A DNA stretch of 48,063 bases. Origin: an uncultured Comamonas sp. GTDB lineage: Bacteria > Pseudomonadota > Gammaproteobacteria > Burkholderiales > Burkholderiaceae_C. This document shows, piece by piece, positions 33,726-37,459 of the stretch (positions are counted from its first letter, which is position 1; the number at the start of each line of letters is the position of its first letter). Position numbers and translations under genes: made by a program. The notes beneath the pieces were generated by a model. It was not told the DNA's origin. It made no database searches and saw only the letters and a list, made by a program, of their open reading frames with translations. The stretch spans positions 1 to 48,063 of the forward strand of contig CABIIJ010000050.1 of assembly GCA_902175065.1 (NCBI GenBank). The letters run 5' to 3'.

Positions 33726-33742
33726 TGGCGGAGAGGGAGGGA
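33726..33742. repeat. distal attachment-site copy
   Basis: TGGCGGAGAGGGAGGGA, identical and in the same orientation as the 3' end of tRNA-Ser at 37443-37459. Flanking bases on both sides differ, so the shared core is 17 bp. It marks the chromosome-element junction next to tRNA-Arg. Confidence 0.88.
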
Positions 33743-34042
33743 CGGATGCCAACCCAATCAAGAAGGTTTGTTAAAACAACAACTTATCTCCGTTGAAGCG
33801 TTTATTGTATGCCAAAAATTGGTAGAACTTTTGGTAGAACACCAAAAAACCCTACTTTTTTGAAATTTGACAGAACAGCCAAAAAGTGAACCTGTCAAAA
33901 AGCCCAAAGTCTTCTATAAGATATAAGACACTAGACTTCATCTAGGGTCGTTCATTTTTTGCTATCAAAAAATGAATGAGCAGGCAAACGAAGTGCGCAA
34001 GTGTCTTCCCCCCTCTTCCACCACGAAAAGGCGACCGTGCCC

Positions 34043-34093
34043 TAGCACAGCCGGACAGTGCGAACGCACCCCAAGCGGTAGCGTTTTTTGCTT
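34043..34093 (+). repeat. long inverted repeat, left copy
   Basis: Begins TAGCACAGCCGGACAGTGCG and ends in an AGCGG...AGCG segment and a T-run. A copy of about 80 % identity lies in reverse orientation at 34824-34873. It contains the small hairpins GTGC-CCTA-GCAC (overlapping its edge) and GTGCG-AA-CGCAC. Confidence 0.75.
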
Positions 34094-34111
34094 AACTATT
34101 GATATTTAAAA

Positions 34112-34265
34112 ACAATTCTTAATGTTCTCAATACTTCCAAAATATAAAAAATCAGATTTGATTTTTTGCTTGATTATTTATTTTAAAAAGAAATTCTTAA
34201 TGTTTTCAATGGATAGAAAGAAAGAAAAATCAGATTTGATTTTTTCTTGATTTTTTCTTGATTGA
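34112..34265 (+). repeat. two AT-rich direct repeats of about 75 bp
   Basis: Both copies start with an ATTCTTAATGTT-TCAAT motif (near 34113 and 34191) and end in a perfect AT-only hairpin with GATT loop: AAAAAATCA/TGATTTTTT at 34146-34167 and AAAAATCA/TGATTTTT at 34225-34244. The middles differ. CTTGATT follows each copy. Confidence 0.65.
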
Positions 34266-34365
34266 TGGAAACACTAATGTTTATGATGGTTAAGGTAAAA
34301 ATAGTATCGCTCTTTACGTAAGTAAAGTGCTGTTGTGTGATGAAAAAAGGGAAGCTTTTTGAATG

Positions 34366-34379
34366 GGCTGTCCGGCTGT
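34366..34379 (-). repeat. partial third copy of the GCCGGACAG motif
   Basis: Reads ACAGCCGGACAGCC on the minus strand and shares 12 consecutive bases with the left long inverted repeat. It lies between the two long copies. Confidence 0.55.
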
Positions 34380-34460
34380 TTTGTATTCATTTTGACTTTC
34401 AATATAACTTTACGCATAGATGTAGCGCACTATTTAAAATGAAATTTCATTGAATATTTA

Positions 34461-34600
34461 TTTGATGTTTCATTGAGATAGTCAAAGATATTTACTTTGA
34501 AATTTACTTTGATGTTTCATTGCAATAGTCAAAGCAATTTACCTTGAAATTTACATTGCAATTTCATTTCAATAATCAAAGCAATTTACTTTGATGTTTC
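34461..34600 (+). repeat. three tandem 47-bp iteron-like repeats
   Basis: Units at 34461-34507, 34508-34554 and 34555-34600 share TTTCATT-N3-ATAGTCAAAG and ATTTACTTTGA segments. Units 1 and 2 differ at only a few bases; unit 3 is more diverged. Each contains an internal CTTTGA/TCAAAG inverted pair. A partial fourth unit (GAAATTTCATTGAATATTTA) precedes them. Tandem iterons in AT-rich DNA are typical of replication-origin or partition sites. Confidence 0.7.
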
Positions 34601-34873: not shown

Positions 34874-34910
34874 ATGCATACCGCCTTTTCCGTTCTGGAA
34901 GACAAACAAA

Positions 34911-34932
34911 AAAGAACCTAATTAGGTTCTTT
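34911..34932 (-). terminator. terminator of the 101-residue gene
   Basis: A perfect 22-bp palindrome of the form AAAGAACCTAA/TTAGGTTCTTT followed on the minus strand by TTTGTTTG. It lies 24 bp after the stop codon of the orphan gene. Confidence 0.75.
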
Positions 34933-34956
34933 CTTCAATACAATTAATATGGTTAG

Positions 34957-35262
34957 TTATTTTTCGTTGAACTCTGATAAATGCTGTTCATATCTTCCTT
35001 TTTTCATTGCTCTTTTTAGATAGAAAGACAATGTATAGTGACCTCTTTTTGCGTAAAAACCAATTTTTTTATTCTCATCATTTTCTATATAACTAACTTC
35101 ATAAAAACTATGTGTCCAATGTTCGCTTTCCGGGTGAAAATTTGAAGAGTAAAAATAAGCCGTTTTGTAATCAAAACTTAATTTCTTATCTTTGAAAATT
35201 TCTTCTAAAACTTTCATTGCATCAGTTTTTCTTTTAATTATTTGTCTTTCTGTTTTATTCAT
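34957..35262 (-). CDS. orphan 101-aa protein of the AT-rich element
   Basis: A 101-residue lysine-rich soluble protein (MNKTERQIIKRKTDAMKVLE at the start). It has a strong ribosome site (AAAAAAGG, 8 bp before ATG) and its own terminator, so it is very likely expressed. The N-terminal 25 residues look helical and basic; the middle is aromatic-rich (DYKTAYFYSSNFHPE, HWTHSFYEVSYI); the end is again basic. I do not recognise the family. As the only gene besides the integrase it could be a directionality factor, a DNA-binding regulator or a small effector, but none of these is shown by a motif. Confidence 0.7.
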   Translation of the reverse strand: MNKTERQIIKRKTDAMKVLEEIFKDKKLSFDYKTAYFYSSNFHPESEHWTHSFYEVSYIENDENKKIGFYAKRGHYTLSFYLKRAMKKGRYEQHLSEFNEK

Positions 35263-36024
35263 ATTATTTTCCTTTTTTATTTTAGCAATGCTTTATTACA
35301 TCACCTCACTTCACGATAGCAAAATTATTTATTTTGTCAATTTTAAAAATTACATTCAAAAAAAATCGGCTGGGGAAATTTATTTTCATAAATACTTATT
35401 AGAATATTTTTATATATCAATACTTTGTATGTGTATTTACTCACGTATATTAAGCTAATGCTGTAGTATTTATCTATCTTTGTATTCTGTATTCCTGTAT
35501 TTGCCTTTAACCTCGACGCTTACGCTTGGAGATTAAAGGCAAAGTCTCCCTTACCGCAGTTAAAAAACTTTGGTGGGACTTTACCTTTTTCTGTCTTCTA
35601 TGTTTGTAATTTCTTACGCCCGTATGACTGAAAGGCATTGATAACTTAATGAAGCGTATCAACTCACAAATTCTTGGACTTCATTCCAAACTAGCCGGGT
35701 TTTGCTTTAGTCTTCCGTTGTTGCTTTGCTAGTCTCTCATTCTTGCAACTTAATTAAACTTATACCGAACCGTGATTTCAGACGCTTAAATATAAGATTG
35801 GCATTTATTTTTACCTAGAACAATGCTTAAAAACTTTTTGGACAAAAAAAACACGTCATCAAATTTGATAACGTGCTCTATATATTCTTGACTTTTAAAA
35901 ACTGTTCTGTTAATCTTTATTTAACAGTAAGTTTCGATATTCGCATTATCAAACTTTCTTATAAAGACAGTTTTCGGCTGTCTTTATTTCTTTATATTAG
36001 CAAAATTTAATTGCCTGTCAAGTT
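35263..36024. other. 0.76-kb gene-free region with strong hairpins
   Basis: AT-rich with no credible gene. It contains a 15-bp stem with one mismatch at 35500-35543 (TTTGCCTTTAA against TTAAAGGCAAA), an adjoining hairpin at 35541-35582 (AAAGTC/GACTTT extended by CCC/GGG), and TTGATA/TATCAA near 35640-35665. The two first hairpins share three bases. The region could encode a structured RNA or hold the regulatory region of the orphan gene, whose start lies at its left edge. Confidence 0.5.
35852..35875 (-). terminator. terminator downstream of the integrase
   Basis: CACGTTATCAAA/TTTGATGACGTG (one mismatch) on the minus strand, followed by eight T. It should end the integrase transcript. A further hairpin, ATAAAGACAG/CTGTCTTTAT at 35961-35987, lies closer to the stop codon but has a T-rich tail only on the plus strand. 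Confidence 0.75.
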
Positions 36025-37428
36025 TTAAAAACTGAATGTGATATGTTTTTTTGTCAACTCATAGATACTTTTAAAAGTCTCTTGTGTTGTTTCTTCTAGA
36101 TACTCAATTGTAAATTCATTAGAATAAATATTAGAATTTACGTTATCAAATTCGTGCCCCAAAATTTGACAACGTGCTTCAACATCAACACCGAACCTTT
36201 TCATTTCATTGTTTACGAACTTGCGCAGACTATGAAAAACCAACTTTTGACGGGTAACACCTGCGGCTTTTAAATGCCTCGGAAACTTCTTTCCAGCTGC
36301 ATTTCCTGAGCCTTTACCATCCTTAGCCTCATACTTAAAAATCTTATCTTCTTTGCTATCAATAAACGGCTTAATAAAGTGATAGAAAGTCTTATAAATT
36401 GGGACTTCTCGCTGTCCTGCTAGTGTCTTACTATCACGAATGTGAATGTAATGAGTTCCGTTTTCCGATACTTTAAATTGGCTCTTTTCTAGGCTTGTAA
36501 CTTCACCAATTCGCATACCTGTAAACAATGCGATGAACAAAGTATAAAAATAATCTTTATCTTTATCTTTTGCAACTTTCATAAAGTCGCTATTAAAGAT
36601 TGCCTCTATTTCTTCACGTTCAAAGATGCCATAACCTTCTTTAAGCCTTTGCTTCTTTGTCATCAATGCTTTGTTAGCACAAGGGTTTTCATTGAAGTAA
36701 TGTTTTTGCTGGATAGCAAACTTAAACAATGCGTGCAGATTGATAAGTTTGTTATCTATGGTTCTTGTTGCATTGCCTTTGTCTGCAAGCCAACTTTGAT
36801 AGCGTAAAACATCGCTTTCTGTAATGTCTGCAATGTGTTGTTTACGAATGAATTGGGCAAACTCTTTTGCCACGTTTCCATAGGCTAAGGCGGTGGCAGG
36901 CTTTAGCTGTTTTTTCAATTTGAAGTATTGCTCTACCAGTTCCGCCACCTTGATACCCTTGTGAGCCGTTTTAGGGGGTGTTTCTGGCGTTTGTGTGGCT
37001 GGTTGGGGTGTTGGTAGCCCCTGTAACCCTTTGAGCGTGTTTAGGGCTTCTATGGCTCTTTGGTGGTCTTCTGGGGTTCCGTCCGTTTTGAGGTAGCCAT
37101 TTTTGAGGTCTATCTCATAGGTTCGGATGTTGGACAAATCGAAATCTTGCAGGCGTGGCTTGTTCATTGCTAGATTTTCTAGCAATTGATTACAAGTATT
37201 CGTGAGTTGGTAAGCGATTTGATGAGCTTTAAGCCTCACCTCGTGCCCTGCTCCGGTGCCCAAAGGAAAGAACAGGTATTTTTTGCCTAGGTGTTCCTGA
37301 AGCGCAGTAGGAACAAAGAACCGCACGTAGTGGCGTTGGCGCTTAGAAAATAGAAAAGGCTTCAAGATTGATAGACCAATTGGTATACCTTCTTGAAGCC
37401 GTTTCTGCAATAAATCCTTGAAAATCAA
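36025..37428 (-). CDS. tyrosine recombinase / integrase of the element
   Basis: 467 residues from a TTG start. The catalytic residues of tyrosine recombinases are all visible: Arg306 in GMRIGEV, Lys334 in DSKTLAGQREVP, His399 and Arg402 in FHSLRKF, His425 in ILGHEF, and the nucleophile Tyr435 in NSNIYSNE. A SAM-like core-binding domain occupies about 160-255 (VAELVEQYFKLKKQLKP). Codon use is AT-rich, unlike the host. The gene begins 15 bp from the 3' end of tRNA-Ser, its likely integration target, and reads away from it. No ATG occurs near the N-terminus and no ribosome site is obvious, so the start is uncertain; the frame stays open into the tRNA. Confidence 0.9.
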   Translation of the reverse strand: MIFKDLLQKRLQEGIPIGLSILKPFLFSKRQRHYVRFFVPTALQEHLGKKYLFFPLGTGAGHEVRLKAHQIAYQLTNTCNQLLENLAMNKPRLQDFDLSNIRTYEIDLKNGYLKTDGTPEDHQRAIEALNTLKGLQGLPTPQPATQTPETPPKTAHKGIKVAELVEQYFKLKKQLKPATALAYGNVAKEFAQFIRKQHIADITESDVLRYQSWLADKGNATRTIDNKLINLHALFKFAIQQKHYFNENPCANKALMTKKQRLKEGYGIFEREEIEAIFNSDFMKVAKDKDKDYFYTLFIALFTGMRIGEVTSLEKSQFKVSENGTHYIHIRDSKTLAGQREVPIYKTFYHFIKPFIDSKEDKIFKYEAKDGKGSGNAAGKKFPRHLKAAGVTRQKLVFHSLRKFVNNEMKRFGVDVEARCQILGHEFDNVNSNIYSNEFTIEYLEETTQETFKSIYELTKKHITFSF

Positions 37429-37442
37429 AGACTTACAGCGAT

Positions 37443-37459
37443 TGGCGGAGAGGGAGGGA
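37443..37459. repeat. attachment-site copy inside tRNA-Ser
   Basis: TGGCGGAGAGGGAGGGA forms the CCA end, acceptor strand and the start of the T-arm of tRNA-Ser. It is identical to the distal copy at 33726-33742. The integrated element restores the tRNA 3' end, as is usual for tRNA-targeting integrases. Confidence 0.88.

What the first reader, a model, noticed from the sequence alone, without database searches (positions are those of the whole stretch)
33726..37459. Compact AT-rich element in tRNA-Ser with almost no genes
Seen directly: 17-bp direct repeats, a sharp composition change, a tyrosine recombinase, one orphan gene and about 2 kb of structured non-coding DNA. Integrative elements this small usually carry either a recognisable helper function or visible gene decay. 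This one has intact hairpins and repeats but no Rep, Mob, Xis or capsid gene. It may be a minimal satellite that borrows replication and transfer from a helper, which would be a poorly described class.
Basis: partly seen in the sequence, partly recalled or inferred. Interest (0 to 1): 0.78.

Follow-up and report, generated by a model that had tools for sequence, protein, structure and literature searches.

The report
Minimal hitchhiking DNA element with new RNA
A 3.7-kb DNA element in a bacterial tRNA gene probably travels by hitchhiking on the DNA-transfer machinery of other elements, and much of what looked like empty DNA is a transfer-origin-like site plus an apparently undescribed folded RNA that it shares with larger mobile elements.

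Summary
Confirmed: an AT-rich insert (33743-37459, G+C 0.35) flanked by 17-bp repeats at tRNA-Ser(CGA), with an intact tyrosine integrase (445 aa, TTG start at 37365), one orphan ORF and no Rep, Mob or capsid match. It is not a decayed singleton. Another species of the genus (G029) carries a collinear copy in the same site, also without a visible relaxase. The integrases are 91% identical in DNA and under purifying selection, whereas serS and greB are 77% and 71%, so the gene-poor form probably moves between species. The non-coding part has two main pieces. (1) An oriT-like segment (34178-34364) resembles the region upstream of the coupling-protein and MobF-relaxase genes of an AT-rich element in G051. 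(2) A structured RNA (about 35499-35802, minus strand) has a covarying pseudoknot: 176 of 177 base-pair cells hold in ten elements, and 16 of 18 pairs have compensatory changes. No Rfam family matches it. Eight of the ten elements encode relaxases of three classes. Best reading: a minimal relaxase-less mobilizable element (iOriT/MGI type) that borrows relaxase and pore in trans, carrying a new RNA family of unknown role. [quoted passage not shown] oriT activity and RNA expression are untested.

The parts
33726..33742 (.). 17-bp direct repeat, tRNA-Arg side end of the element
   Evidence: exact repeat; a related sequence lies at the ends of the G029 and G046 elements
37443..37459 (.). 17-bp direct repeat inside the 3' end of tRNA-Ser
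37443..37532 (-). tRNA-Ser(CGA), integration target, restored by the element end
   Evidence: empty sites in relatives
33637..33713 (-). tRNA-Arg(ACG), 3-20 bp from tRNA-Ser in 18 of 30 loci read
36025..37365 (-). tyrosine integrase, 445 aa, TTG start
   Evidence: dN 0.038, dS 0.357 against G029
33743..34010 (.). conserved end arm, also in G029 and G046 and weakly in G049 and G408
   Evidence: nhmmer
34178..34364 (+). oriT-like segment, related to the region upstream of the RHH-like, coupling-protein and MobF-relaxase genes of G051 and to G029
34312..34338 (+). core of the oriT-like segment: 6-bp hairpin CTTTAC/GTAAAG, then TGTGT (proposed nic region)
   Evidence: outer pair is C-G here and A-T in G029 and G051
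34110..34168 (+). partial second copy of the oriT-like segment
   Evidence: (D3)
34443..34603 (.). 47-bp direct repeats with roughly 12-bp phased subunits, also in G029
   Evidence: (D1, D2)
34022..34087 (-). 60-bp GC-rich repeat, inverted copy 1, also in the G049 tRNA-Ser element
   Evidence: D60
34830..34892 (+). 60-bp GC-rich repeat, copy 2, also in G029 and the G049 tRNA-Ser element
   Evidence: D60
34957..35262 (-). orphan ORF, 101 aa; the G029 copy has no matching DNA here (cargo?)
35499..35802 (-). conserved structured RNA (minus strand), whole; true ends not known
35663..35802 (-). RNA 5' domain: P1, P2 (35749-35745/35724-35720), pseudoknot (35732-35728/35695-35691), P3 (35717-35715/35698-35696), P4 (35689-35685/35678-35674)
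   Evidence: sequence
35500..35588 (-). RNA 3' domain: 35546-35535 can pair with 35588-35577, or the overlapping 35543-35529 with 35514-35500
35848..35879 (-). terminator-like hairpin between int and the RNA

Best explanation
The insert is a minimal, relaxase-less integrative mobilizable element. Its integrase inserts it at, and presumably excises it from, the 3' end of tRNA-Ser(CGA) (ends and empty sites shown; activity inferred). Transfer is inferred to start at an oriT-like hairpin segment that a MobF relaxase and coupling protein, supplied by elements like the one in G051, recognise in trans. No full pore was seen in that element, so a third element would supply it. The rest of the 'empty' DNA includes a conserved, pseudoknotted RNA shared with larger elements that carry different relaxases (structure shown by covariation; expression and role not shown). 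I think it most likely acts in excision or mobilization, perhaps as a two-state switch.
For: A collinear copy lies in G029 in the same tRNA-Ser, with no relaxase visible among its ORFs. Int is 91.2% identical in DNA (dN 0.038, dS 0.357), against serS 76.6% (dS 0.91) and greB 71.2% (dS 2.85, saturated), which suggests transfer between species. The oriT-like segment matches the region upstream of the coupling-protein and MobF-relaxase genes in G051 (blastn E 1.1e-9 from the window, 1.3e-28 from G029). Its core pattern occurs in 3 of 53 genus genomes, all three in these elements, with no hit for the reversed control (the pattern was made from these three). RNA: 176 of 177 cells paired and 16 of 18 pairs with double changes in ten elements; four of five measures were reached by none of 500 shuffles, the fifth by 1 of 500. 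Relatives of the integrase at tRNA-Ser sites carry relaxases of the MbeA/PF03432, Mob_Pre, MobA/MobL or TrwC families.
Against: No MobF relaxase (PF08751) was found in G000 or G029, and other relaxase classes were not searched there. The oriT in G051 is itself placed by position and hairpin, not by experiment. The window segment is only 69% identical to it, so it may be a diverged site for another relaxase, or a regulatory region. No excisionase was found. No transcript data exist here. In two of ten RNAs the alternative 3' helix is not better than shuffled sequence.
Confidence: 0.68

Rival explanations
1. It is a remnant: a former IME that lost its relaxase and is now stranded, with its conserved RNA and oriT-like DNA decaying.
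For: Related integrases sit beside relaxases in larger elements. No MobF relaxase was found in the same genome. The oriT-like core differs from G029 and G051.
Against: The G029 copy, also without a visible relaxase, shares the backbone order; int is more similar than two chromosomal genes and under purifying selection. The hairpin of the oriT-like core is kept by a paired change.
Confidence: 0.17
2. It is a phage satellite packaged by a helper phage.
For: Small size, integrase at a tRNA gene and few genes fit in outline.
Against: PHROGs gives only the integrase. No match of int protein (E up to 1e-10) or non-coding DNA (E up to 0.01) in 50,697 phage records, and no int relative in viral contigs. 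Relatives carry relaxases. Packaging signals were not tested.
Confidence: 0.05
3. The oriT-like segment is only a shared promoter or operator region of an RHH-like regulator, and the element moves by another route such as transformation or generalized transduction.
For: In G051 the segment lies directly upstream of the RHH-like gene, and in MobF plasmids operator and oriT can overlap (recalled).
Against: The small elements keep the segment without such a gene downstream, and keep the hairpin with a paired change.
Confidence: 0.15
4. The conserved structure at 35499-35802 acts as single-stranded DNA, for example as an origin for second-strand synthesis, and not as RNA.
For: It sits in elements of different relaxase types, as a general replication site would.
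Against: Read as minus-strand RNA there are 5 G-U and 1 A-C cells; read as the plus strand the reverse (few cells). Folding is also stronger on the minus strand (z -3.4 against -2.6), though that stretch includes the terminator-like hairpin.
Confidence: 0.15

Closest known systems
Relaxase-less IMEs (MGIs, iOriT), such as MGIVflInd1 mobilized by SXT-family ICEs
   Same: Integrase plus an oriT resembling a helper's; no relaxase. PMC5704250 reports 63% identity over 282 bp for the SXT case; here 69% (window) and 76% (G029) over 181 and 190 alignment columns against G051.
   Different: 3.7 kb instead of the 18-33 kb given there; MobF-type presumed helper; no recognisable excisionase; a conserved structured RNA. 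PMC5704250 also reports 1.7-2.0-kb MGIs that use a DDE transposase.
sgm-sRNA of Salmonella genomic island 1 (PMC9299015)
   Same: An element-encoded RNA (derivatives of about 330-450 bases) in a helper-dependent island; essential for SGI1 transfer.
   Different: Encoded beside oriT and mpsA, not behind int. Homology could not be tested: no SGI1 sequence was held. Function of the RNA here is unknown.
Small IMEs with the same type of integrase in tRNA-Ser (G046, G408, G049, G230, G200, Massilia agri)
   Same: Integrase family, and a tRNA-Ser target in these six
   Different: They encode relaxases of several classes. Of the six, only G046 and G408 gave an RNA hit in this element.

Membership tests
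IME without relaxase (iOriT/MGI) | Site-specific integrase and flanking repeats at a defined site | tested here: met
IME without relaxase (iOriT/MGI) | No relaxase and no mating-pore genes on the element | tested here: met
   Both main ORFs scanned; ORFs of 88 aa or less not scanned
IME without relaxase (iOriT/MGI) | An oriT that a helper relaxase uses | tested here: inconclusive
   Homology and hairpin to the G051 region; nicking and transfer cannot be tested here
IME without relaxase (iOriT/MGI) | Transfer between cells | tested here: inconclusive
   Int divergence lower than that of two chromosomal genes; no mating data
CIME | Integration and transfer genes lost, att sites kept (definition in PMC5704250) | tested here: not met
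   Integrase intact and under purifying selection
Phage satellite | Phage-derived packaging or capsid functions | tested here: not met
   packaging signals were not tested
Known Rfam RNA family | Covariance-model match at the RNA | tested here: not met
   No match at the RNA with E up to 5 in the window. In one search (9 of the 10 RNA loci, G029's left out; E up to 1) matches at or near the RNAs were all below gathering score, e.g. mir-50 in L092 and L098 and c-di-GMP-I-GGC in L091 (24.3 bits, cut-off 59); the C4 RNA and tRNA in L100 lie elsewhere
SGI1 sgm-sRNA | Sequence or structural homology, and requirement for transfer | not testable with these tools

The most novel reading that the evidence does not exclude
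The RNA is the founding member of a family of structured, pseudoknotted, two-state RNAs that mobilizable elements need for excision or conjugative transfer whatever relaxase they use. The minimal elements show the smallest set that suffices: integrase, oriT and this RNA.
Probability: 0.3. Interest if true: 0.88.

Novelty: new variant of a known kind. Interest (0 to 1): 0.66.

Why it matters
[quoted passage not shown] This case offers a recognisable pair: a gene-poor element and a relaxase element with a related site. The RNA gives a sequence-and-structure marker for mobilizable elements and a concrete target for asking why such elements keep a large RNA. SGI1 needs a self-encoded RNA for transfer by an unknown mechanism (PMC9299015); a second, structurally well-defined RNA would make that question testable.

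Tried and rejected
Int protein against plasmids, phages and viral contigs gave no match. Non-coding DNA against plasmids and phages gave no match. The G051 relaxase in plasmids gave 222 records, none covering 80% of the query and all under 60% identical; the 20 listed cover 48-66% at 27-29%. It found no relative in viral contigs. The G051 oriT core and RNA region in plasmids gave none; two other RNA copies gave none and one 42-base match at E 0.01. The orphan ORF has no significant relative in plasmids, viral contigs or the PADLOC, Pfam, PHROGs or NCBIfam libraries. The core oriT pattern and an RNA consensus pattern found nothing in viral contigs.

Considered and dropped: an integron-like array (the GC-rich 60-bp repeats are only two copies here and one each in G029 and G049); a known ribozyme or riboswitch; the RNA as a leader of the orphan gene (G029 has the RNA without that gene's DNA).

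Weak or adverse results: R2 hits of 12.8-15.6 bits in L028, L029 and L002 (E 1-4.7) were not counted. Of 369 genomes of the class only the window's own had the RNA, and in the family 5 of 399; these searches score at most 8 candidates per genome, so absence is soft. Int relatives in L002, L028, L029, L031-L035 and L037 have no RNA hit at a useful score, so the RNA is not a fixed companion of this integrase; L035 is cut by a contig end. The script that chose the upstream 3' helix took the best helix per sequence and has no shuffled control. Promoter-like sites in the element are no more than chance (11 against 10.6), and no promoter of the RNA was identified. Hits from overlapping loci of the same genomes (for example L055, L056) were dropped as duplicates.
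Full report
OBSERVATION. The 17-bp repeats at 33726-33742 and 37443-37459 are exact, and the second is the 3' end of tRNA-Ser(CGA). The 3717 bp from 33743 to 37459 have G+C 0.349 in a chromosome region of about 0.67. Two ORFs are credible: an integrase and a 101-aa orphan; together they cover 1644 of 3717 bp. The integrase probably starts at the TTG at 37365: the G029 homologue has an ATG at this codon and a stop upstream.

THE SITE. A match to tRNA-Ser(CGA) was found in 50 of 53 genus genomes. Of the 30 loci read (the best-scoring of 54 matches), 18 have tRNA-Arg(ACG) 3-20 bp downstream; in the window the gap without the element would be 12 bp. 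Of the other 12, three hold elements (window, G029, G046), one has tRNA-Arg at 170 bp and eight show none in the stretch held. So the site is naturally empty in many relatives.

A SECOND COPY. Integrase hits at E up to 1e-50 occur in 5 of 53 genus genomes including the window's own, and at E up to 1e-60 in 8 of 399 family genomes including its own. G029 carries a collinear element of about 4.1 kb in the same tRNA gene: end arm, oriT-like segment, 47-bp repeats, GC-rich repeat, RNA, integrase. It lacks the DNA of the 101-aa ORF and has a different 152-aa ORF elsewhere, with no Pfam or PADLOC match. No relaxase is visible among its listed ORFs, of which only the 152-aa one was scanned. Integrase DNA is 91.2% identical with dN 0.038 and dS 0.357; serS is 76.6% (dS 0.91) and greB 71.2% (dS 2.85, saturated). 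Only two chromosomal genes were compared. The simplest reading is transfer between species in the gene-poor state, with the integrase under selection.

RELATIVES WITH RELAXASES. Integrases 34-54% identical sit in elements with relaxases where I looked: G046 (PF03432 and MobC; MbeA type), G408 (MbeA type), G049 (TrwC with helicase domain), G230 and Massilia agri (Mob_Pre), G200 (MobA/MobL) and G023 (weak PF03432, below cut-off). G324, G282, G185 and G066 were not examined for relaxases. Thus the integrase is kept and the mobilization module varies; here the relaxase is missing. The class labels MobP for the MbeA/PF03432 type and MobV for Mob_Pre are recalled.

THE oriT-LIKE SEGMENT. Window 34182-34360 matches G051 8538-8715 (L036) at 69%, and the G029 element matches the same place at 76% over 190 columns. 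In G051 this is the gap directly upstream of three minus-strand genes: an RHH-like 83-aa ORF, a coupling protein (PF10412) and a TrwC/MobF relaxase (PF08751). The RHH label rests on my reading of the sequence and position; Pfam gave no RHH hit. In MobF plasmids such as R388, oriT lies at this place and has a hairpin 5' of nic (recalled). The three sequences share a hairpin followed by TGC-N3-TGTGT; the outer pair is C-G in the window and A-T in the other two. The pattern taken from these three occurs nowhere else in 53 genus genomes with up to 2 mismatches, and its reversed control nowhere. This shows specificity, not an independent test. MobF relaxases occur in 6 of 53 genus genomes, not in G000 or G029; other relaxase classes were not searched there. 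The G051 element (about 18.6 kb, delimited by composition only) also has a DotA/TraY-like protein. No complete pore was seen, but only 13 of the 23 ORFs listed were scanned with Pfam. Two helpers may therefore be needed. PMC11389934 (passages) describes such chains: iOriTs that use the relaxase of an iMOB and the pore of another element.

THE RNA. A 287-bp segment at 35509-35795 is 85% identical to G051. A profile found it also in G046 and G408. Read on the minus strand, the 5' domain has helices P1-P4 and a pseudoknot. On the first five sequences 95.8% of 118 cells pair and 15 of 24 pairs have double changes. A model from these five (R1, no pseudoknot) found the RNA in 7 of 53 genus genomes, three of them new: G049 (a second element, E 1.8e-16), G048 (1.4e-11) and G027 (1.3e-6). 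A second model (R2, from eight sequences) found two more, G377 (1.2e-6) and G110 (7.4e-4), among 5 of 399 family genomes, and only the window's own among 369 genomes of the class. With all ten (P1 left out, because it does not align in several), 176 of 177 cells pair and 16 of 18 pairs have double changes. The pseudoknot pairs, which no model contained, are 100% paired with 5 of 5 covarying. Slid controls reach 29-46%. Fifty cells have double changes against 13.5 in shuffles. Five G-U cells and one A-C cell favour the minus strand as the functional one.

The 3' domain shares a helix of 10-12 pairs and a GGGU..AGGG-like motif in the ten sequences (best helix chosen, no shuffled control). The central strand can also pair with a downstream strand. 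That alternative beats shuffled sequence in at least 199 of 200 trials in five elements, in 190-195 of 200 in three, and not convincingly in G051 and G110. A two-state switch is therefore suggested, not shown.

WHERE THE RNA SITS. All ten copies lie within 10 kb of an integrase gene. In eight of ten the RNA match begins 190-660 bp downstream of the integrase, in the same direction (window, G029, G046, G408, G049 second element, G048, G027, G377); in G408 and the G049 element a 95-aa ORF lies between. In G051 and G110 it is not beside the integrase. Relaxases in the same elements: PF03432 or MbeA type in G046, G408, G049, G048 and G027; Mob_Pre in G377 and G110; TrwC in G051; none seen in the window or G029. 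The outer limits of the G051, G048, G027, G377 and G110 elements were not mapped by repeats. The RNA thus goes with the element type rather than with one relaxase. Rfam has no match for it in the window at E up to 5 nor, above gathering score, at the RNA in nine loci (L100 has a C4 antisense RNA and a tRNA elsewhere).

MECHANISM. Shown: insertion site, ends, gene content, a second copy in another species, homology of one segment to the upstream region of a MobF operon, and a conserved RNA fold. Inferred: excision by Int, nicking at 34312-34338, use of a relaxase and pore in trans, and a role of the RNA in excision or transfer. The nearest precedent is SGI1, whose authors showed that a self-encoded RNA is essential for mobilization and argued against simple activation of its mobilization genes (PMC9299015; outline, abstract and passages read).

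NOVELTY. The element is a new, very small variant of a known kind (MGI/iOriT). The RNA appears to be undescribed: no Rfam match, and the listings of paper searches (20 of 30, 20 of 52 and 12 of 195 papers shown) contained none on such an RNA, apart from the SGI1 paper. Those searches cover open-licence papers only and cannot exclude a description elsewhere.

Noticed in passing
L036 15430-18111 (G051 element): The AT-rich mobilizable element with a MobF relaxase and its own coupling protein also encodes a DotA/TraY-family protein (NCBIfam TIGR04346 E 4e-62), recalling how SGI1 carries replacement pore subunits; it may alter a helper's pore.
   Followed up: partly
window 35887-35990 (+) and the same place in G029, G046 and G051: Between int and the RNA (beside the RNA in G051) there is, by eye, a TTGACT-type promoter-like site (not in the list) followed within about 100-150 nt by a terminator-like hairpin, on the strand opposite the RNA: possibly a second small RNA gene.
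   Followed up: no
L100 2505-2586 and L102 (G110): The GC-rich G110 locus carries the RNA, a Mob_Pre relaxase and a C4 antisense RNA (RF01695, 70.6 bits), a regulator known from P1/P4-type phages and satellites (recalled).
   Followed up: partly
L033 8951-11753 (G230): A 2.7-kb element in tRNA-Ser(GGA) in which an integrase and a Mob_Pre relaxase gene are the only ORFs of 60 aa or more listed.
   Followed up: partly
G040:C1:4408955 and G021:C1:494917, 532296: Extra 83-bp pieces of tRNA-Ser lie 11-49 kb from the intact gene, as expected for tandem or large elements in the same site.
   Followed up: no
L026 13133-13731 (G029): Three tandem tRNA-Arg(ACG) genes beside the element, against one in the window.
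   Followed up: no
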